Shown here: positions 26,403-35,971 of the stretch, piece after piece | Layout: every line of letters starts with the position of its first letter | Numbering within the stretch: position 1 is the first letter of the stretch | Source: Catenovulum maritimum | GTDB taxonomy: Bacteria > Pseudomonadota > Gammaproteobacteria > Enterobacterales > Alteromonadaceae | Reading direction: 5' to 3' | Length of the DNA: 64,000 bases | Assembly: GCF_001050375.1 (NCBI RefSeq) | Contig: NZ_KQ130485.1 | Span: 1 to 64,000, forward strand | Translations under genes and position numbers: made by a program | Notes under the pieces: generated by a model | Databases searched by the model: none | What the model saw: the letters and a program-made list of their open reading frames with translations, nothing else | Told to the model about the DNA's origin: nothing

Positions 26403-27347
26403 ATGAGCGATATAAAGTTATTCAAACTAGACCAAGCAAAAGGAACTGCACTAGAATTAGTGCGAACACAAGCTAAGCTTGAGAAAGACTTGCAGCAGCT
26501 CGTTGAGTCACAAATGGAAACCTTCCTGAATGTAAAGTTCCTTGCTTCAGAATTTACTACCTCAAACGGTGGCAGAATAGATTCACTTGGTGTAGATGAA
26601 AATGGCTGTCCAGTCATCATAGAATACAAACGGCACACCAATGAAAATGTAATTAATCAAGGACTGTTTTATTATGATTGGCTTATTGATCATAAGGCTG
26701 AATTCAAGTTACTCGTAATGGACAAACTCAGCAGTGAAGCTGCTGACAATCTTGAATGGGAAGGTGCACGTTTAATTTGTATCGCTACTGACTTTACCAA
26801 GTATGATGAACACGCGATAAAACAAATTGATAAAAACATTGAGCTGATGAGATACAAATATTTCGGAGAAGATTTGTTTTTATTAGAATTGGTAAACAGC
26901 CACTCATCTAACCGTTACTTTTCTAACCCCGCAGCTGCCGCACTACAGGAAAAGACAGTTCAAGAAACTTCAAAAAAAGAACGGAAGGATTACCATCAGA
27001 ATCGAATCGCTGCCGCTAGTGAAGACCTTTTAAAGCTTTATGAGCATATTTGTGAATTTGGCTTATCACTCGGTGACGACGTGCAACGCAAGGAACTAAA
27101 GTTCTACACAGCACTGAAGAAAATCAAAAATTTCGCGAGCGTTCAAGTATGGGCACCTTTACAAGACCCTTCATTGAGAATTTATTTAAACTTAAATCCT
27201 GAATCGGTAGAGCTTAAAAATGGTATCGTCAGTGATGTTAGAGGTAAAGGGCATTGGGGAACTGGTGATCTAGAGGTTATCGTCCGAAATATTGAAGAGC
27301 TGGATATAGCAAAGCAATTAATAAAGCTAAGCTTCGAGCAAAACTAG
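26403..27347 (+). CDS. DUF5655-type protein with PD-(D/E)XK nuclease-like domain
   Basis: 314 residues. The N-terminal half has a restriction-endonuclease-like core: Asp60 (GGRIDSLGVD), then Glu74-x-Lys76 (VIIEYKR), followed by NQGLFYYDWLIDHKAEF. The C-terminal third (about 195-314) matches the DUF5655 pattern (LYEHICEFGLSLGDDVQRKELKFYTALK, in part), proposed as a nuclease-associated binding domain. It is 11 bases upstream of hsdR and probably heads the same operon. It could be an extra nuclease or a restriction accessory. Confidence 0.75.
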   Translation: MSDIKLFKLDQAKGTALELVRTQAKLEKDLQQLVESQMETFLNVKFLASEFTTSNGGRIDSLGVDENGCPVIIEYKRHTNENVINQGLFYYDWLIDHKAEFKLLVMDKLSSEAADNLEWEGARLICIATDFTKYDEHAIKQIDKNIELMRYKYFGEDLFLLELVNSHSSNRYFSNPAAAALQEKTVQETSKKERKDYHQNRIAAASEDLLKLYEHICEFGLSLGDDVQRKELKFYTALKKIKNFASVQVWAPLQDPSLRIYLNLNPESVELKNGIVSDVRGKGHWGTGDLEVIVRNIEELDIAKQLIKLSFEQN

Positions 27348-27358
27348 GGAGAGTAAAG

Positions 27359-30199
27359 TTGGTAAATCAAAACGCAGAACAAATAGCACGCGATAAAATC
27401 GATGAAATGCTAAAACTTGCAGGTTGGACTGTTCAAGATAAAACCAAAATTAACTTGAATGACGGTATCGGTCAAGCTATTCGTGAATACCAGACAGATG
27501 TAGGCCCCGCCGATTATGTTCTTTTTGTTGATAAAAAAGCCGTTGGGGTTATCGAAGCTAAACGAGAAGAAGCAGGTGAGAAAATCACTTCCGTTGAAGA
27601 CCAAACCGAAGGCTACGCTAACGCAAAGCTTAAATGGGTCAACAATAGTGAGCCACTACCTTTTTTATATGAAAGCACAGGTGTTATTACACGTTTTACG
27701 GATGGCAGAGATCCTAAGCCTCGCTCCCGTGAAGTTTTTAGTTTTCATCGACCTGAAACGCTAAAAGTATGGGTTGAACAAGGAAACTCTCTTCGTGCTC
27801 GTCTTCAAGATATTCCACCGTTAAATCCAGCAAAGCTACCTGCAAAAGATTTAGGGCTGCGTGATTGCCAAGAAACAGCAATAACAAACCTTGAAGACTC
27901 GCTTCAAAAAGCGAGGCCGAGAGCGCTTATCCAAATGGCAACTGGCGCTGGTAAAACTTATACCGCTATTACATCCATGTATCGCATTCTTAAACATGCC
28001 AAGGGTAAGCGTATTCTCTTTTTAGTAGATACTAAAAACTTGGGTGAGCAAGCTGAGCAAGAAATGCTTAACTTTACGCCAAGTGACGACACCCGTAAGT
28101 TTACCGAACTGCATGTCGTACAGCGCTTAAAGTCAAAGTTTGTGCCTAAAGATGCTGAGGTGTGTATCAGTACCATCCAGCGAATGTACTCCATTTTAAA
28201 AGACGAAGAATTAGACGAGACATTAGAAGAGCAAAACCCTGCTGAGCAACTTACCAAGCCTAAAGAGCCAGTTCCTGTTGTTTACAACCCTAAAGTACCT
28301 ATAGAGCATTTTGATTTCATTTTTATCGATGAATGCCACCGCTCAATCTATAACTTATGGCAACAAGTATTAGATTACTTTGATGCTTTCCTGATTGGCT
28401 TAACAGCAACCCCCGATAACCGCACTTATGGTTTCTTTAAGCAAAACATTGTCAGTGACTACAGTCACGAAAAAGCTGTTGCTGATGGTGTTAACGTAGG
28501 TAATGAAGTTTTTACCATTCAAACCAGAATTACCAAAGAAGGTGAAACGTTACAAGCTAAACAGCAAGTAGAGCACCGTGAACGTGTGACCCGTAAAAAG
28601 CGCTGGGAGCAACAAGATGAAGACGAAAAGTACAGTGCAAAACAGCTTGATAAAGATATCGTAAACCCTAGCCAAATTCGTACAGTCATAAAAACCTTCA
28701 AAGAGAGCTTACCTATCATTTTCCCTGATAGAGAGCATGTGCCTAAAACATTAATCTTTGCAAAAACCGACAGCCATGCTGACGATATTATTCAAACGGT
28801 TCGAGAAGAGTTTGACGAAGGTAATTCTTTTTGTAAAAAAATCACCTACCGTGTAAAGAAAGATAAAACAGATAAAGACGGTAATATTATCGAGCAAGGT
28901 GAAGATCCTAAATCGGTACTCTCTAGCTTTAGAAATTTATACGAACCTCGCATTGCAGTGACCGTGGATATGATAGCAACAGGTACAGATATAAAACCAC
29001 TTGAGTGCCTTGTGTTCATGAGAGATGTTAAAAGTCGAAACTATTTCGAGCAAATGAAAGGTCGCGGAACACGCACTTTTGACCATGATGAATTAATCAA
29101 GGTAACGCCAGATGCAAAGTCTGCAAAAACGCACTATGTTATTGTTGATGCAATTGGCGTTACTAAATCACTTAAAACAGCGAGTCAGCCTTTAATCACT
29201 AAACCATCTGTACCACTCAAAGATTTGGCTATGGGCATTATGATGGGGGCTAGTGATACTGACTCTGTAAGTTCACTTGCAGGCAGGTTAGCACGATTGA
29301 ACAAGCAGCTAGATGCCGATGATAAGAAGCGAATTGAAAAGGTATCGGGTGGTGTCTCAATTACTCAAATGGTAGTTGATTTATTCTCGGCCATTGATGG
29401 CGACAAAGTAGAAGAGCAAGCGATAATACTGGCAAAACAGCCAAAAGGCACAGACCCAGGCGAAGATAATCGCAACAAAGCTCAGGCTGAGATGGTAAGT
29501 AAAGCTGCCAATGTCTTTAACGGCGAGTTAATTGAGCTTATCGATACCATCCGCCGAGATAAAGACCAAAAGATCGATCATGACAACATTGATGAAGTAC
29601 AAATAGCCGATTGGGAAAAGGCGACCACTGAACAAGCATCAGATATTTGCAAAGAGTTCGTTGAATATCTAGAGCAAAACAAAGATGAGATTACCGCGTT
29701 GGAAATATTCTACGACCAACCACATCGTCGTCGTGAAATCACCTTTGATATGGTCAAAGAAGTGCTCGAAAAACTCAAATCAGATAAACCTAAACTAGCC
29801 CCACTAAATGTATGGCAAGCGTATGAATTACTCGAAGACCCTGACAATAAAAAAGAACAGGGTAATAAGCCAATTAATGAGTTAACCGCTTTAGTCGCAT
29901 TAATTCGCCGTGTAGTAGGCATTGATGATAAACTCTCGACCTTTAATACCACCGTCAGCAAGAATTTCCAAACGTGGATCATGAAGCACCACTCAGGTAG
30001 CAACCAAAAGTTCACTAAAGAACAAATGGCGTGGCTACATATGATCCGTGAACACTTTGTTAATTCATTCCATTTTGAATTAGATGATCTGGAAATGTCA
30101 CCATTTGATGCACAAGGTGGTTTAGGCAAGATGTATCAACTCTTTGGTGATGATATGAATAAAATTATAGATGAATTAAATAGTGAGTTAGTAGCTTAG
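27359..30199 (+). CDS. hsdR: Type I restriction enzyme R subunit (HsdR)
   Basis: 946 residues. The start is TTG, supported by AGGGAGAG eight bases upstream. An N-terminal PD-(D/E)XK nuclease (Asp52, Glu66-x-Lys68 in GVIEAKRE) precedes a two-lobed SF2 translocase with Walker A (MATGAGKT, Lys198) and DECH at about 324-327, TATP (GLTATPDN) and a motif VI region (QMKGRGTRT). The C-terminal helical part binds the methylase core. The N-terminal pattern is closest to EcoAI-like (type IB) subunits. It overlaps hsdS by one base. Confidence 0.95.
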   Translation: MVNQNAEQIARDKIDEMLKLAGWTVQDKTKINLNDGIGQAIREYQTDVGPADYVLFVDKKAVGVIEAKREEAGEKITSVEDQTEGYANAKLKWVNNSEPLPFLYESTGVITRFTDGRDPKPRSREVFSFHRPETLKVWVEQGNSLRARLQDIPPLNPAKLPAKDLGLRDCQETAITNLEDSLQKARPRALIQMATGAGKTYTAITSMYRILKHAKGKRILFLVDTKNLGEQAEQEMLNFTPSDDTRKFTELHVVQRLKSKFVPKDAEVCISTIQRMYSILKDEELDETLEEQNPAEQLTKPKEPVPVVYNPKVPIEHFDFIFIDECHRSIYNLWQQVLDYFDAFLIGLTATPDNRTYGFFKQNIVSDYSHEKAVADGVNVGNEVFTIQTRITKEGETLQAKQQVEHRERVTRKKRWEQQDEDEKYSAKQLDKDIVNPSQIRTVIKTFKESLPIIFPDREHVPKTLIFAKTDSHADDIIQTVREEFDEGNSFCKKITYRVKKDKTDKDGNIIEQGEDPKSVLSSFRNLYEPRIAVTVDMIATGTDIKPLECLVFMRDVKSRNYFEQMKGRGTRTFDHDELIKVTPDAKSAKTHYVIVDAIGVTKSLKTASQPLITKPSVPLKDLAMGIMMGASDTDSVSSLAGRLARLNKQLDADDKKRIEKVSGGVSITQMVVDLFSAIDGDKVEEQAIILAKQPKGTDPGEDNRNKAQAEMVSKAANVFNGELIELIDTIRRDKDQKIDHDNIDEVQIADWEKATTEQASDICKEFVEYLEQNKDEITALEIFYDQPHRRREITFDMVKEVLEKLKSDKPKLAPLNVWQAYELLEDPDNKKEQGNKPINELTALVALIRRVVGIDDKLSTFNTTVSKNFQTWIMKHHSGSNQKFTKEQMAWLHMIREHFVNSFHFELDDLEMSPFDAQGGLGKMYQLFGDDMNKIIDELNSELVA

Positions 30200-31749
30200 T
30201 GAGTGACTTAAATAAAAATAACTTACCTGTTGGTTGGGAGATAGATGACTATGCAAATATAGTTACAACTATTTCTACAAATGGGAAAAAAGTTAATCAG
30301 AAACAGTATGAAGTATCAGGGAAATATCCAGTTATAGATCAAGGTAAAGAAGATTGTAGTGGGTATTGTAACGATGAAGAAAAAGTCATAGATGCAAACT
30401 TCCCTATCTTGGTTTTTGGAGATCACACTAGGACTGTTAAATCAATCAATAATCCCTTTGTGGCCGGAGCTGATGGCGTAAAAGTTCTTCAGCCTAGTGG
30501 AGCAATTACACCGAAGCTTTTATTTTATTTCACCCAATATCTAGCGATATCAATCAAAGATAAAGGGTATGCACGACATTACCAGTGGGTTGCTAAAGAG
30601 CTTATTGGCATTCCACCAGAAAATGAACAAATCCGTATTGTTGAAAAAATAGAAGAGCTATTCTCTGAATTAGATAAAGGAATTGAATGTCTAAAAACCG
30701 CTAAGGCACAACTTGCTGTTTATCGCCAAGCGTTGTTAAAACATGCTTTTGAAGGCAAATTAACCGAAGAATGGCGTGCCAGTAATGCAGATAAGCTTGA
30801 ATCGCCGGAACAGCTTCTTATTCGCATTCAACAAGAACGAGAATCTCGTTATCAACGGCAGCTCAATGATTGGAAACAAGAAGTAGAACAATGGGAAGCT
30901 GACGGCAAAGAAGGCAAAAAGCCAACTAAACCTTCAAAGCCAAAAGATTTACCTGCAATAGAGTTTTCTGAGCTTGAATTGTTACCTGATATTCCTAAAG
31001 AGTGGGCTTATGAACGACTTGCGCACATATCTTTTGTAGGCTCAGGAATGTCAGTAAGTAAAAGCAGGAAACTGGAAGAGCCGATAGACGTTTCTTATCT
31101 TCGTGTCGCAAATGTTCAGCGAGGGCAATTGATTTTAGACGAAATAAAAGAAATGCCCGTTGAAAAAAGTAAACTTAAAGATCTAAGGCTCAAAAAGTGG
31201 GATGTGTTATTTAATGAGGGTGGGGATAGAGATAAATTAGGTAGAGGCTGGATTTGGGAAGACCAAGTATCCCCATGCATCACTCAGAATCATGTTTTCC
31301 GTGCATCTACATACATTCCAACAGAATACCACGCCAAGTTTATCTCTCACTGGGGTAATACCTTTGGAAGAGATTATTTTGAAAAGGGGGGGAAGCAGAC
31401 AACTAACTTAGCTTCTATCAATAAGACGGTATTGAGCATGTTTCCAGTGCCTGTTCCATGCTTTCAAGAGCAGAAAGAAATAATTTTGAAATTAGATGAC
31501 TGCTTCTCTTTTATTGACAAAATAGAAGCAGAACTTATTGAGTCTGAAAGAAAATCAGAAGCCTTAAGACAATCAATTCTAAAGAAAGCATTCTCAGGAC
31601 AACTAGTCTCTCAAGACCCCAATGATGAACCAGCTATCGAGCTATTGAAGAAAATAGCGATTGAAAAAGCAGAACTAGCTGAGAAAGAGAAAGCAGAAAA
31701 GGCGGCTGCCAGAAAAGCGAAAGCGGCAGCTAAAAAAGCGAAAACATAA
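30199..31749 (+). CDS. hsdS: Type I restriction specificity subunit (HsdS)
   Basis: 516 residues; GTG start inside TAGTG, one-base overlap with hsdR. It has two target-recognition domains (about 10-150 and 260-415), each followed by a helical spacer (NEQIRIVEKIEELFSELDKG; QEQKEIILKLDDCFSFIDK) that sets the gap between the two half-sites. A linker of about 100 residues carries KQEVEQWEADGKEGKKPTK. The tail is Lys/Ala-rich. It determines which DNA sequence is methylated or restricted. Confidence 0.94.
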   Translation: MSDLNKNNLPVGWEIDDYANIVTTISTNGKKVNQKQYEVSGKYPVIDQGKEDCSGYCNDEEKVIDANFPILVFGDHTRTVKSINNPFVAGADGVKVLQPSGAITPKLLFYFTQYLAISIKDKGYARHYQWVAKELIGIPPENEQIRIVEKIEELFSELDKGIECLKTAKAQLAVYRQALLKHAFEGKLTEEWRASNADKLESPEQLLIRIQQERESRYQRQLNDWKQEVEQWEADGKEGKKPTKPSKPKDLPAIEFSELELLPDIPKEWAYERLAHISFVGSGMSVSKSRKLEEPIDVSYLRVANVQRGQLILDEIKEMPVEKSKLKDLRLKKWDVLFNEGGDRDKLGRGWIWEDQVSPCITQNHVFRASTYIPTEYHAKFISHWGNTFGRDYFEKGGKQTTNLASINKTVLSMFPVPVPCFQEQKEIILKLDDCFSFIDKIEAELIESERKSEALRQSILKKAFSGQLVSQDPNDEPAIELLKKIAIEKAELAEKEKAEKAAARKAKAAAKKAKT

Positions 31750-31823
31750 TATTACGATAGGTCGCGTTAAACATGAGTATTCATAAATATGCGACTATCT
31801 CAAAAAAGAATTAAGTGAAAAGA

Positions 31824-33305
31824 ATGAACGCACAAAGTATAGTATCTAAAGTTTGGAGTTTTTGTACCACCTTACGTGATGATGGTGTCGGCTACGGTGA
31901 CTACCTTACTCAATTGACTTATCTGATCTTCCTTAAAATGGCAGATGAGTACAGCAAGCCACCTTATAGCCGAGATGTCGGTATCCCTGAAGAGTACAAT
32001 TGGCAGAGCCTTAAAAATGAAACTGGCTCGGATCTTGAGGTGCATTATGTAACTACATTGAGAGAGCTAGCTAAAAAACCTGGTATGTTAGGGCAGATAT
32101 TTACTAAGGCGCAAAACTACATCCAAGACCCTTCGAAACTGAAACGCTTAGTTGAAATGGTTGATGATGTAAATTGGGTGATGATGGGGTCTGACACTAA
32201 AGGCACCATCTATGAAGGCTTATTAGAAAAGAACGCCGAGGATACAAAGTCAGGCGCAGGACAATACTTTACTCCTCGCGACCTGATCAAAACGATAGTT
32301 TTATGTATGAGACCAGCACCAAATCAAACTATTGCTGATCCGGCATGTGGCACAGGCGGATTTTTCTTACATGCCTATGATTTTATTACTGACCCTAAAA
32401 ACTACAAGTTAGATAAACAGCAAAAAGCATTTCTTAAAAATGAAACATTCTTTGGCAACGAAATTGTCGCCAATACTCGCCGTCTATGTTTAATGAACAT
32501 GTTTTTACACAACATTGGTGAAATTGACGGTGACAGCCTTGTTAGTGGAGATGATTCATTAATATCGCAACCTTCACGCACAGTGGACATGGTTCTTGCT
32601 AACCCTCCGTTTGGTAAGAAAAGCAGCATGACGTTTACCAATGAAGAAGGTGAACAAGAAAAAGACGATCTAACCTACAACCGACAAGACTTCTGGGCGA
32701 CTACTTCAAACAAACAGGTAAACTTCGTTCAGCACATACGCAGCATGTTAAAAACAACTGGCCGTGCTGCTGTGGTTTTACCTGATAACGTATTGTTTGA
32801 AGGTGGTGCGGGTGAAACCGTTCGTAAGAAGTTGATGGAGAGCACTGAGCTTCATACGATTTTACGTCTACCAACGGGTATCTTCTACGCAAACGGTGTA
32901 AAGGCGAATGTCTTATTCTTCGACAACAAGCCTGCACAAAAAGACGCATGGACAAAAGACATCTGGTTCTTCGATTATCGTACCAATGTTCATCACACCT
33001 TGAAGAAAAAGCCAATGACAATGGTTGACCTTCAAGAATTTGTTGATTGTTATAACCCTGGGAACAGACATGACCGAACAGAAACATGGAACGAAGAAAC
33101 AAACCCTGAAGGTCGTTGGCGTAAATACACTCACGAAGAAATTTTAGCGCGTGATAAAACTAGCTTAGATATTTTCTGGCTAAAAGATAAATCGCTAACC
33201 GACTTAGAAAACCTGCCTGACCCGGAAGTATTAGCAGGAGAGATAATTGAAAACATGGAAGCAGGCTTAGACAGCTTCCGCCAAGTATTGGCCGCATTAC
33301 AATAA
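31824..33305 (+). CDS. hsdM: Type I restriction DNA methyltransferase (HsdM)
   Basis: 493 residues from the ATG at 31824 (MNAQSIVSKVW, the usual HsdM beginning); a GTG at 31815 would add three. N-terminal helical HsdM domain (DDGVGYGDYLTQLTYLIFLKMADE, in part), then the N6-adenine methylase motifs: motif I DPACGTGGFF (about 172-181) and motif IV NPPF (260-263). Two HsdM with one HsdS form the methylase. Gene order R-S-M with the methylase last is unusual, because M normally precedes R. Confidence 0.94.
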   Translation: MNAQSIVSKVWSFCTTLRDDGVGYGDYLTQLTYLIFLKMADEYSKPPYSRDVGIPEEYNWQSLKNETGSDLEVHYVTTLRELAKKPGMLGQIFTKAQNYIQDPSKLKRLVEMVDDVNWVMMGSDTKGTIYEGLLEKNAEDTKSGAGQYFTPRDLIKTIVLCMRPAPNQTIADPACGTGGFFLHAYDFITDPKNYKLDKQQKAFLKNETFFGNEIVANTRRLCLMNMFLHNIGEIDGDSLVSGDDSLISQPSRTVDMVLANPPFGKKSSMTFTNEEGEQEKDDLTYNRQDFWATTSNKQVNFVQHIRSMLKTTGRAAVVLPDNVLFEGGAGETVRKKLMESTELHTILRLPTGIFYANGVKANVLFFDNKPAQKDAWTKDIWFFDYRTNVHHTLKKKPMTMVDLQEFVDCYNPGNRHDRTETWNEETNPEGRWRKYTHEEILARDKTSLDIFWLKDKSLTDLENLPDPEVLAGEIIENMEAGLDSFRQVLAALQ

Positions 33306-33317
33306 TAAGGACATAAG

Positions 33318-34787
33318 ATGCAAATTGAGAACTTTTCAAACGACTGTGAAATAGTTATCGGGTTAGTTGCTCCCGTTGGTGTTAATTTAGATGATGTACA
33401 TAACCGCTTCGTTTCATATTTCAATCAATTCAGATACGAAGTTAACTATATTCACCTTTCTCAAGTTGCAAAGGAATTTCAAGGTATTGCGACAGGCCCT
33501 TACACTGAGCAAAGCCGTTTAGATACTGCCATGAATACGGGTAATGCCCTAAGACAAAAAAGTGAACGAGGGGATTTATTTGCGCTATTAGCAATAAATG
33601 AAATTAATAAAAAGCGCTTGGGTGAAACACCTGAACCATTGCCGAGACACGTTCATATTATTAGATCACTTAAGCATCCTGATGAAGTTGAAACGTTGAG
33701 GCAAGTCTACGGCCCAGGCTTCATCCTTTTAGGCATATCTTCTAGTATAGAAAGCAGGAAGCGCTACTTAAAAGATGAAAAAGGAGTTCCTGAAGAAGAG
33801 CTGGAAAGGTTAATTGAAAGGGACGATAAAGAATCCGATTCATTTGGACAAAGTACAAGAGATGTATTCCAAATAGCTGATGCCTTTGTGACATCAGATG
33901 ACGCACATTCATTATCGACACAAATAGGCAGAACGCTCGACTTATTATATTCCAAACCCGTAGTCCCACCGACAGCTGATGAATATGCGATGTTTATGGC
34001 ATATGCTGCATCTCTTCGCTCTGCCGATTTATCTAGACAAGTGGGAGCTGTTTTAACTAATCAAGAGTCAGATATTTTAGCTACAGGTGCTAATGATGTG
34101 CCCAAATCAGGAGGTGGCTTATATTGGCCTGTTGATGGTGAAGATAATAGAGACTATGAATTAGGTAAAGACTCAAACGAAGAGCAAAAAAATAAAATCA
34201 TATTAAACATCATGAAAAAGTTTAGTAACCCTGAAGAAACAACTGACGAGGAGTTATTAAAAGAAGGCAAAAAGAAGCTTAAAGACACGGGGCTATTAGA
34301 TATTACCGAGTATGGACGAGCTGTTCATGCTGAGATGGAAGCACTTTTATCCTCAGCAAGAAATGGAATTTCGACTAGAGATGCTAATTTATATACAACA
34401 ACTTACCCTTGTCATAATTGTGCTAAACACATTGTAGCTTCCGGCGTGAAAAGAGTTTTATATATAGAACCGTATCCAAAGAGCTTTGCGACTATACTTC
34501 ACAATGACTCTATCAATGCTGAAGGCAGCCCAGGTGAGTCAGAAAAAGTGATGTTTGAACCATTTGTTGGCATAGGGCCAAGAAGGTTTGTTGATTTATT
34601 TTCAATGAATTTGAGCAGTGGCAGGAAGTTGAAACGTAAGGAAAATGGTCTGTTAAAAGAATGGAACCGGAGAGACTCAGAGCTACGAGTTCCTATGACT
34701 CCCTTGTCTTATTTAGATGCAGAGGTTATGTTAATAGAGCAGCTTGATGAAATTAAAGAATCAGCGAAGGAAAATAAAAATGACTAG
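33318..34787 (+). CDS. avcD: AvcD-type anti-phage deoxycytidylate deaminase
   Basis: 489 residues. The N-terminal NTPase-like domain starts CEIVIGLVAPVGVNLDDVH and continues to about residue 210. The C-terminal zinc deaminase domain has the proton-shuttle motif HAE (His337-Glu339) and the zinc cysteines PCHNC (Cys365, Cys368). This layout matches AvcD/anti-phage dCTP-deaminase proteins, which deaminate deoxycytidine nucleotides on infection and starve phage replication. It follows hsdM by 12 bases, so it is probably in the restriction operon. No space exists upstream for an AvcI-type RNA. Confidence 0.88.
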   Translation: MQIENFSNDCEIVIGLVAPVGVNLDDVHNRFVSYFNQFRYEVNYIHLSQVAKEFQGIATGPYTEQSRLDTAMNTGNALRQKSERGDLFALLAINEINKKRLGETPEPLPRHVHIIRSLKHPDEVETLRQVYGPGFILLGISSSIESRKRYLKDEKGVPEEELERLIERDDKESDSFGQSTRDVFQIADAFVTSDDAHSLSTQIGRTLDLLYSKPVVPPTADEYAMFMAYAASLRSADLSRQVGAVLTNQESDILATGANDVPKSGGGLYWPVDGEDNRDYELGKDSNEEQKNKIILNIMKKFSNPEETTDEELLKEGKKKLKDTGLLDITEYGRAVHAEMEALLSSARNGISTRDANLYTTTYPCHNCAKHIVASGVKRVLYIEPYPKSFATILHNDSINAEGSPGESEKVMFEPFVGIGPRRFVDLFSMNLSSGRKLKRKENGLLKEWNRRDSELRVPMTPLSYLDAEVMLIEQLDEIKESAKENKND

Positions 34788-34932
34788 CACAGAGAAAAAC
34801 ATTACAAGAGCAAAACAAGTCGTTGATAGTTGGCCTACATGGAAGAAAAACATACAGCTAACCAAGTATAAATCTGCTTCAAAAGAAAACTCTCAAACCA
34901 CTCACAAGCAACCAGAGCTTCAATGTGGTTAA
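34780..34932 (+). CDS. 50-residue protein overlapping the deaminase gene
   Basis: The ATG at 34780 lies inside the end of avcD in another frame, overlapping it by eight bases, so translation is probably coupled. The product is basic and hydrophilic, with ARAKQVVDSWPTWKKNIQL-like core (written RAKQVVDSWPTWKKNI). I recall similar WPxWK small ORFs but cannot name a family. A role in controlling or assisting the deaminase is a guess from position. Confidence 0.6.
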   Translation: MTSTEKNITRAKQVVDSWPTWKKNIQLTKYKSASKENSQTTHKQPELQCG

Positions 34933-34947
34933 CTTTTTTAGCTAAAT

Positions 34948-34974
34948 ATTAGCGGCATACATTTTGCCGCTAAT
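34948..34974 (+). terminator. Intrinsic terminator after the deaminase unit
   Basis: A 10-bp perfect stem (ATTAGCGGCA at 34948-34957, TGCCGCTAAT at 34965-34974) with a 7-base loop, followed by TAATAGTTTTT. It ends the restriction/deaminase transcript. Confidence 0.65.
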
Positions 34975-35004
34975 TAATAATAGTTTTTAAGATATATTTG
35001 AAAG

Positions 35005-35090
35005 CACAGGAGCCGCTTAGCTCCCGTGATGAATTAGTCTCTTTTTCAAAGTTCAAACCTCCACTTAACAGAGTTGGCAATACTCTGTTA
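35005..35090. other. Two further stable hairpins, possible small RNA or terminators
   Basis: Hairpin A: CACAGGAGC (35005-35013) with GCTCCCGTG (35020-35028), 8 of 9 pairs. Hairpin B: TAACAGAGT (35066-35074) with ACTCTGTTA (35082-35090), 9 perfect pairs. With the terminator at 34948 this gives three stem-loops in 145 bases without an ORF, between the deaminase unit and the HNH gene. Confidence 0.4.
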
Positions 35091-35143
35091 CTTTCTGATG
35101 TATCTTTTCTTTTTTTGTCATAAAAATAAAGGGAATTAGAGTT

Positions 35144-35971
35144 TTGTCAGAGATTGATCTAGAAGAGTTAAGGCCAACATCACATAGAAAAATTATAGAG
35201 CTTGTTGAAGAGGCAGGTATTGATATTTCTGATTGGGCAAATTTCAAAGGTGGTGCAGAAAAAGCTTCAATGAACCCTAAATATTGTTATGAGTGGTCAT
35301 TTGAAGAACGAAAAAATAATATTTTTGTATTAAACCTTTGGTTTGATAATTGTGAAATTATTGATGGTATTGTAATTCAGCAACTTAATTTAAGAAGTGA
35401 AGCCGAAGAGTTCAAAGGGATACAGAAACGCCGCGCTTTTAATATGGACTTTTCATTGCAAAATGCTGCAAGGTTAAATGCTCCAATAAGGGTTATCATG
35501 TGTGATGAAAACCCAAAACTTAAAAAGCTTGATACCAAATCTAATGCGGATAGGAGATTCCTAGATCCCATTAATTGGTATATAAAAAAGTATGGAGATA
35601 ATGGCGACTGTCTACTTCAGCGAGGGAAATTAGTCCCTGCCTTTATTGACCAGTTTTCATTTCGAGAACTAGAACCCATTCAACCCGAAAAGCAAGAAAC
35701 AACCACTACAAGCTATTCTAGAAGTAAGGCCGTTAGAGAGCAAGTGTTGGTTCGTGCTGATGGTCATTGTGAGTATTGCGGCGTAAGAGGTTTCAAAACC
35801 AAAGTTGGTTCTCTTTACCTAGAAAGCCATCATATCACCCCTCTATCTGAAGGTGGTGTAGATCACCCTAATAATGTCATTGCTTTGTGCCCTAATCACC
35901 ATAGAGAAGCTCACTATAGTGAATCTGCACTGGAACTTAGAAGCGTATTTTTGGAAAAAATTGGACAATAA
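35144..35971 (+). CDS. HNH endonuclease, probable defence nuclease
   Basis: 275 residues from a TTG at 35144 with AAAGGGA nine bases upstream. The C-terminal HNH domain (about 200-265) shows CEYCG, LYLESHHITPLSEGG, HPNNVIALCPNHHREAHY (zinc Cys pair, catalytic His, Asn and His). The N-terminal 180 residues form an unrecognised domain (starting about DISDWANFKGG). Such fusions act on foreign or modified DNA. It lies after the terminator of the restriction operon and just ahead of the last cargo gene. Confidence 0.82.
   Translation: MSEIDLEELRPTSHRKIIELVEEAGIDISDWANFKGGAEKASMNPKYCYEWSFEERKNNIFVLNLWFDNCEIIDGIVIQQLNLRSEAEEFKGIQKRRAFNMDFSLQNAARLNAPIRVIMCDENPKLKKLDTKSNADRRFLDPINWYIKKYGDNGDCLLQRGKLVPAFIDQFSFRELEPIQPEKQETTTTSYSRSKAVREQVLVRADGHCEYCGVRGFKTKVGSLYLESHHITPLSEGGVDHPNNVIALCPNHHREAHYSESALELRSVFLEKIGQ

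What the first reader, a model, noticed from the sequence alone, without database searches (positions are those of the whole stretch)
33318..34932. AvcD-type deaminase without room for an upstream AvcI RNA, but with a coupled 50-residue ORF
Known: in Vibrio, AvcD is held inactive by the AvcI RNA encoded just upstream. Seen: only 12 bases separate hsdM from this gene. Instead, a 50-codon ORF overlaps its end by 8 bases. Inferred: control here may come from the small protein, from RNA downstream, or from the restriction operon itself.
Basis: partly seen in the sequence, partly recalled or inferred. Interest (0 to 1): 0.6.

Follow-up and report, generated by a model that had tools for sequence, protein, structure and literature searches.

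The report
Tiny protein partner of phage-defence deaminase
A phage-defence enzyme that destroys DNA building blocks, known in other bacteria to be held in check by an RNA, is here followed by a gene for a tiny conserved protein that accompanies this branch of the enzyme across many bacterial phyla and may be its controller.

Summary
In detail: 12 bases separate hsdM from avcD (33318-34787), and a 50-codon ORF (34780-34932) overlaps avcD by 8 bases. The ORF is a real gene. A short ORF with a WPxWK-like core follows avcD in 62 of the 80 closest genome-contig loci. Scored by profiles that leave out the whole cluster of relatives, it beats all 3,125 control ORFs in 63 of 81 loci, in 12 of 20 clusters. 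60 of 69 have a Shine-Dalgarno-like site, against 12% of control ATGs; dN/dS falls to 0.06 in Pseudomonas. It marks one avcD branch with members from eight phyla. Pfam, NCBIfam and PADLOC do not know it; unnamed PHROG 38465 matches some copies.

I found no AvcI-like RNA here. Most likely the small protein binds and restrains AvcD, as a protein antitoxin. Pairing and coding are well supported; binding and inhibition are inferred. 18 of 80 loci lack a clear copy.

Unexpected: 12 AvcI-type loci have a different upstream ORF of 55-68 codons, where the AvcI RNA is reported; a close copy with a premature stop argues against its being essential.

The parts
33318..34787 (+). avcD: anti-phage dCMP/dCTP deaminase, 489 aa, adenylate-kinase-like N domain and zinc deaminase C domain (HAE 337-339, PCHNC 364-368)
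   Evidence: PADLOC dCTPase 3e-170, Pfam PF00383 3e-17, invariant zinc-site columns in 56 rows, fold matches to dCMP deaminases and to adenylate-kinase-related proteins
34780..34932 (+). small ORF, 50 aa, VVDSWPTWKK core, overlaps avcD by 8 bases
   Evidence: conserved in position and sequence in avcD loci of eight phyla; protein-coding selection in relatives
34767..34771 (+). AAGGA ribosome-binding-like site of the small ORF, inside the avcD end
   Evidence: 60 of 69 small ORFs have an SD-like site at this place
33307..33311 (+). AAGGA ribosome-binding-like site of avcD, in the 12-base gap after hsdM
34948..34974 (+). hairpin just after the small ORF (10 pairs), probable transcript end
   Evidence: fold of 34925-35000 has z-score -3.1; not reported by the strict terminator scan, since the T run starts about ten bases later
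31815..33305 (+). hsdM, type I methyltransferase, ends 12 bases before avcD
27359..31749 (+). hsdR (27359-30199) and hsdS (30199-31749), upstream genes of the same array

Best explanation
avcD and the small ORF form a two-gene, translationally coupled module. AvcD is a two-domain dCMP/dCTP deaminase that, by family, drains deoxycytidine nucleotides during phage infection. The 50-aa protein (an N-terminal helix, a WPxWK turn, and a variable tail of low model confidence) is made from the same message straight after AvcD, binds it and keeps it inactive until infection, for example host transcription shut-off, removes the labile partner. It would do as a protein what AvcI does as RNA in the other branch. 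Shown here: the ORF is a real protein-coding gene, positioned for coupling, and tied to one avcD branch. Inferred: binding, inhibition, lability and release by phage.
For: Position: of 69 small ORFs 51 overlap the avcD stop, 23 by exactly 4 bases, and 65 start within -35..+20 of it. Pairing: 62 of the 80 closest loci; 63 of 81 loci and 12 of 20 clusters above all 3,125 controls with whole clusters left out (a milder version gave the same 63). All 12 of 5,426 E. coli genomes with this avcD type keep it, but these are near-identical copies. Coding: Pseudomonas set dN/dS 0.059, core 0.031, differences by codon position 45/24/203; other sets 0.13-0.41 where computable. Translation: SD-like site in 60 of 69 vs 233 of 1,963 control ATGs inside avcD. 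Specificity: profile search of 397 other genomes gave no match better than 3e-4, against 5e-12 for the window copy. No AvcI-like RNA found: Rfam none; Photorhabdus upstream consensus energy -0.9 kcal/mol with 0 covarying pairs; covariation term of the Pseudomonas ORF region unfavourable. Fold: helix 3-16, pLDDT about 90.
Against: No binding or inhibition evidence. 18 of 80 loci have no clear copy, including eight Acidobacteria rows and a group with an E. coli chromosomal avcD; L109 of these scores above the controls as a degenerate copy, while L100 and L120 look degenerate only by eye and score below them, as does L087, which I had counted as positive by a looser motif. The antitoxin would be translated after the toxin, with no separate promoter seen. 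The tail evolves fast (Photorhabdus tail dN/dS 0.73). The fused-chain model says nothing on docking: it ran AvcD and the small protein together as one helix, and I had no coordinates. The specificity evidence is limited: it is unknown how many of the 397 genomes have an avcD of this branch, and tblastn on plasmids missed a copy that is there.
Confidence: 0.48

Rival explanations
1. The small protein is a positive partner: a subunit or activator that AvcD needs for folding, oligomer assembly, substrate supply or phage sensing. Translation right after AvcD loads it onto the new enzyme.
For: Fixed gene order, enzyme then small ORF with overlap, suits a co-assembling subunit; absence from some branches is easier for an accessory than for an essential antitoxin.
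Against: No known domain in about 50 residues; no direct test.
Confidence: 0.3
2. An RNA restrains AvcD here as in AvcID: the small-ORF message itself, a 3' processed RNA ending at the hairpin, or an RNA inside hsdM. The ORF is incidental or only helps RNA turnover.
For: The related AvcID branch is controlled by an RNA (PMC10511110, introduction and passages); a strong hairpin follows the ORF; AvcI-type loci also hold RNA and ORF in one place.
Against: Near-saturated synonymous change with a conserved peptide core; ORF RNA no more stable than shuffles (z -0.4) and hsdM end likewise (z 0.2); no conserved upstream fold in eight Photorhabdus loci; no Rfam match. A hairpin also follows the ORF in V. 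nigripulchritudo (z -3.8), as a terminator would.
Confidence: 0.12
3. The small protein is a passenger: a regulator of another process or a peptide that only travels with avcD.
For: No interaction evidence; the tail varies freely.
Against: Association with one avcD branch over eight phyla and no convincing copy seen elsewhere are hard to explain for a passenger.
Confidence: 0.1

Closest known systems
AvcID (V. cholerae, V. parahaemolyticus, ETEC), described as a type III toxin-antitoxin system
   Same: Same enzyme family (PADLOC dCTPase for the window and for ETEC H10407 p58); a small element next to avcD
   Different: Separate avcD branch (AvcI-type branch support 98); AvcI lies upstream and is reported as RNA; here the element lies downstream and is selected as protein
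Type II toxin-antitoxin modules with toxin first (HigBA-like order, recalled)
   Same: Toxic enzyme followed by a small protein gene with overlapping ends, if AvcD is the toxin
   Different: No similarity to a known antitoxin in Pfam, NCBIfam or PADLOC; neutralisation not shown
Rpn nucleases inhibited by their own small C-terminal products (PMC10327210; only the search listing and the start of the abstract seen)
   Same: A defence enzyme restrained by a small protein encoded at its 3' end
   Different: There the small protein is the enzyme's own C-terminal domain, translated separately; here a separate overlapping frame
PHROG 38465 (unknown function)
   Same: Matches the Pseudomonas-type small ORF (4e-13) and four others weakly (0.001-0.03)
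   Different: No function or partner is named; the window copy reaches only E 0.08

Membership tests
Anti-phage dCTP deaminase (AvcD, PADLOC dCTPase) | Sequence match to the family model | tested here: met
   PDLC02373 3.1e-170 over residues 7-487
Anti-phage dCTP deaminase (AvcD, PADLOC dCTPase) | Intact zinc deaminase site HAE and PCxxC | tested here: met
   H337, E339, C365, C368 invariant in 56 rows
Anti-phage dCTP deaminase (AvcD, PADLOC dCTPase) | Deamination of dCTP/dCMP and phage protection | not testable with these tools
   needs enzyme assay and plaque assay
AvcID type III toxin-antitoxin | avcD lies in the branch of AvcD with upstream AvcI | tested here: not met
   window lies outside the AvcI-type branch, which has support 98
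AvcID type III toxin-antitoxin | Separate upstream RNA gene of about 171-300 nt | tested here: not met
   12 bases to hsdM; no Rfam match; hsdM end folds like shuffles. An RNA inside hsdM is not strictly excluded
AvcID type III toxin-antitoxin | RNA binds and inhibits AvcD | not testable with these tools
   needs binding and activity assays
Type II (protein) toxin-antitoxin | Adjacent small protein gene placed for co-translation | tested here: met
   8-base overlap and AAGGA site; coding selection in relatives
Type II (protein) toxin-antitoxin | Similarity to a known antitoxin family | tested here: not met
   no match above a curated cut-off in Pfam or NCBIfam and none in PADLOC below 0.02, for the window copy and relatives
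Type II (protein) toxin-antitoxin | Small protein binds and neutralises the toxin | not testable with these tools
   needs co-expression and pull-down

The most novel reading that the evidence does not exclude
Both large branches of AvcD work with a tiny dedicated protein: a WPxWK protein encoded downstream in the branch of this window, acting as a protein antitoxin in place of the RNA, and an unrelated protein, often ending LxW, encoded upstream inside the region described as the AvcI RNA. The type III label of AvcID would then be incomplete.
Probability: 0.22. Interest if true: 0.8.

Novelty: new variant of a known kind. Interest (0 to 1): 0.62.

Why it matters
AvcD-type deaminases are phage-defence enzymes that harm the cell if left on. 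How the enzyme is held off has, as far as I could read, been shown only for the AvcI branch. A conserved second gene in the other branch gives a directly testable answer, suggests that one-gene models in defence catalogues miss a part, and offers a small inhibitor or partner of a nucleotide-depleting enzyme. The ORF in the AvcI position of the known branch makes the RNA-only view testable too.

Tried and rejected
Small-ORF searches. tblastn on plasmids with the window copy and an Enterobacter copy gave nothing, but it also missed the copy on the V. nigripulchritudo plasmid (L030), so it says little. Phages: one true hit beside an avcD (MT838710) and two weak ones in Xanthomonas and Erwinia phages of about 367 kb, not followed. 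The profile search of 398 genomes gave 18 weak hits in 17 genomes besides the window; of 10 loci that I printed (output partly cut), those I could see lay in chance frames against longer ORFs; eight hit loci were not opened. Viral-contig scans with two copies find close relatives only: one chance frame and nothing. PDB has no relative of the small protein and only deaminase-domain relatives of AvcD. The two branches' small proteins show no profile similarity.

The N-terminal extension of some AvcD was considered as a substitute for the small ORF and rejected: it occurs with and without it. Docking by a fused chain failed: small rows aligned to the wrong AvcD columns, so the model had no relatives for the tail.

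Choices and dropped rows. The 80 loci are the best of 324 found, so they favour this branch. The tree left out L048, L052, L106, L153, L160 and L164 (broken, truncated or fragments) and duplicate L124; near-copies such as L031/L188 and L136/L197 stayed. L136 matched the motif by chance and was counted as negative. L003, L087 and L126 were counted as positives by a looser motif. L095 starts 102 bases after the stop. L123 and L124 were left out of the 69. Labels of the AvcI-type rows were set by hand: L157 without any upstream sequence, L159 and L161 by nearness to L158; one search then showed that L161 has the ORF cut at 44 codons and L159 has no ORF with that start. The first leave-out test removed whole clades for five groups only, so I repeated it with all clusters removed.

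The two 2022 Nature Microbiology papers on AvcID and on dCTP deaminase defence are not held, so I cannot exclude that either mentions these ORFs. I recall that the AvcI work judged ORFs in the region dispensable; recalled, not read.

Full report
What is there. The window holds an array of a PDC-S18 gene, hsdR, hsdS, hsdM, avcD and a 50-codon ORF on the + strand. hsdM ends at 33305 and avcD starts at 33318, so 12 bases separate them; the ORF 34780-34932 overlaps avcD by 8 bases. Both avcD and the ORF have an AAGGA site before the start codon. avcD matches the PADLOC dCTPase model at 3e-170 and keeps zinc-site residues that are invariant in 56 aligned rows. The predicted fold joins an adenylate-kinase-like part to a dCMP deaminase part. 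The genome has one avcD and one copy of the ORF.

The ORF is a conserved gene. A scan of 84,980 species genomes with a five-row AvcD alignment found 324 relatives and kept the best 80, so the sample favours this branch. A short ORF with a WPxWK-like core follows avcD in 62 of these 80. The motif occurs 62 times in the downstream windows, where the rate in the rest of the same loci predicts 0.29. Because that pick used the motif, I repeated the test without it. I scored every short ORF near the avcD stop with a profile from which the whole cluster of the locus (AvcD identity 55% or more, single linkage) had been removed: 63 of 81 loci (80 plus the window) and 12 of 20 clusters beat the best of 3,125 control ORFs; the window ORF scored 26.0 bits, the best control 9.3. 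A milder version gave the same 63. Over 69 small ORFs, viral, plasmid and whole-genome loci included, 51 overlap the avcD stop, 23 by exactly 4 bases. In the 66 with strict WPxW, V stands three residues before the first W in 52 and F fourteen before in 37, positions that the search pattern did not demand.

It is selected as a protein. In five Pseudomonas-type copies dN/dS is 0.059, and 0.031 in the core, with 45, 24 and 203 differences at codon positions 1, 2 and 3 over all pairs. A second Pseudomonas set gives 0.13, a Marinobacter-window set 0.19, Acinetobacter 0.34, and Photorhabdus 0.41 overall but 0.20 in the core; a Zoogloea set was too diverged to compute. A conserved RNA would not leave synonymous sites this free. 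A Shine-Dalgarno-like site precedes 60 of 69 starts, against 233 of 1,963 ATGs inside avcD. RefSeq annotates the copy in an E. coli satellite at tRNA-Sec, P4-like by my reading, as a hypothetical protein; all 12 of 5,426 E. coli genomes with this avcD type keep it, as near-identical copies.

It belongs to one branch of AvcD. A tree of 146 AvcD proteins puts 68 of 70 positives into a branch of 89 rows (support 91) with positives from Pseudomonadota, Myxococcota, Acidobacteriota, Planctomycetota, Bacillota, Bacteroidota, Fibrobacterota and Omnitrophota, some from single metagenome bins. The AvcI-type branch is separate (25 rows, support 98) and has no WPxWK ORF. A third part of the tree, 32 rows mostly from viral contigs and plasmids, has two positives with looser motifs (L003, L126) and 30 rows without. 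Of the 18 negatives among the 80, eight are one Acidobacteria group, four belong to a seven-row group that also holds an E. coli chromosomal avcD, and six are others (L052, L053, L100, L103, L104, L120). The contigs of L052 and L071 end within 100 bases of the stop. L109 of the Acidobacteria group scores above the controls; L100 and L120 look degenerate by eye but score below them; L087, a loose-motif positive, also scores below. L053 has a zinc-ribbon-like C-terminal extension instead (by eye). So the partner is frequent but not universal.

It was not seen elsewhere, within limits. A profile search of 398 genomes of the phylum found the window copy at 5e-12; matches in 17 other genomes were 3e-4 or worse, and those I could inspect were chance frames. 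How many of those genomes carry an avcD of this branch is unknown. Plasmid, phage and viral-contig searches found it only with avcD, apart from two weak phage matches not followed, but they reach close relatives only and missed one known copy. No Pfam, NCBIfam or PADLOC family covers it; PHROG 38465, of unknown function, covers the Pseudomonas type.

RNA alternatives. No Rfam family matches 33000-35500. The ORF RNA, its antisense and the hsdM end fold no better than shuffles (z -0.4, +1.7 and 0.2). In eight Photorhabdus loci with room upstream the consensus fold has -0.9 kcal/mol and no covarying pair, and the covariation term for the ORF region in five Pseudomonas-type copies is unfavourable although four of 38 pairs show a double change. 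The hairpin after the ORF (z -3.1) has the place of a terminator. Restriction genes are not a general neighbour: weak hsdM-like hits in 2 of 84 loci; two relatives (L034, L119) seem by eye to lie beside type I genes. The short upstream gap is not general either: by crude ORF calling many relatives have 100-500 bases upstream.

Most likely mechanism. The small protein is made next to fresh AvcD and binds it. By analogy with AvcID, where a labile RNA antitoxin is lost after transcription stops and AvcD is released (PMC10511110; introduction and passages read), I think it most likely restrains AvcD and is lost during infection. Structure prediction gives a confident N-terminal helix, a turn at WPxW and a low-confidence tail (mean pLDDT 73). 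Binding, inhibition and lability are inferred. An activator or subunit role is the main rival.

An unexpected parallel. Nine of the 12 end in [LI]xW, three in -D. Ten of 12 have an SD-like site. Two of six pairs compared show third-position excess (p 0.005 and 0.017); the other four are more diverged and show no clear excess. Against a needed protein: in L161 a close copy stops at 44 codons and in L159 that start is absent, with avcD kept; eight further rows of the branch have no such ORF that I saw, and four rows cannot be judged. Pfam and PADLOC know none of six tested. There is no profile similarity to the WPxWK protein. This is where the AvcI RNA of about 171-300 nt is reported; the RNA work is experimental, so the ORF may be a second layer or dispensable. 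That p58 is the ETEC locus tested in the literature was not verified.

Literature. Nine searches listed no paper on a small protein partner of AvcD, judged by titles, abstract starts and the passages I opened. The two primary 2022 papers are not held, so the absence claim is limited to that library.

Noticed in passing
L195:1143-1328, L188:2713-2898, L189:705-887, L193:1195-1377, L192:2651-2821, L191:2671-2844, L038:1177-1344, L039:1156-1362, L158:3736-3921, L163:3706-3891, and upstream of avcD in L213 and L222: Twelve AvcI-type avcD loci carry an upstream 55-68-codon ORF, nine ending LxW or IxW, ten with an SD-like site, in the region described as the AvcI RNA; in L161 a close copy is cut at 44 codons.
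   Followed up: partly
L034, L035, L055, L058, L060, L063, L072, L110, L115, L116, L187: Some AvcD have an extra N-terminal part of about 100 aa with an NWYxSTGxIxFQG-like signature; Pfam reported no domain there for L034 and L035.
   Followed up: partly
L053:4001-5566: A Pseudoalteromonas AvcD without the small ORF has a C-terminal extension with cysteine pairs like a zinc ribbon, by eye.
   Followed up: no
L186:3128-7525: An E. coli P4-like satellite at tRNA-Sec carries avcD and an annotated 57-aa WPEWK protein, WP_000021256.1; 12 of 5,426 genomes have it.
   Followed up: partly
L037 just after avcD stop at 2964: A relative in the host's family has a different 74-aa ORF overlapping the avcD end, perhaps another kind of partner.
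   Followed up: no
window 26403-27347 and 35144-35971: A PADLOC candidate PDC-S18 gene at the head of the array and an HNH-nuclease gene after it, similar to type IV restriction models: the region is a defence island.
   Followed up: no
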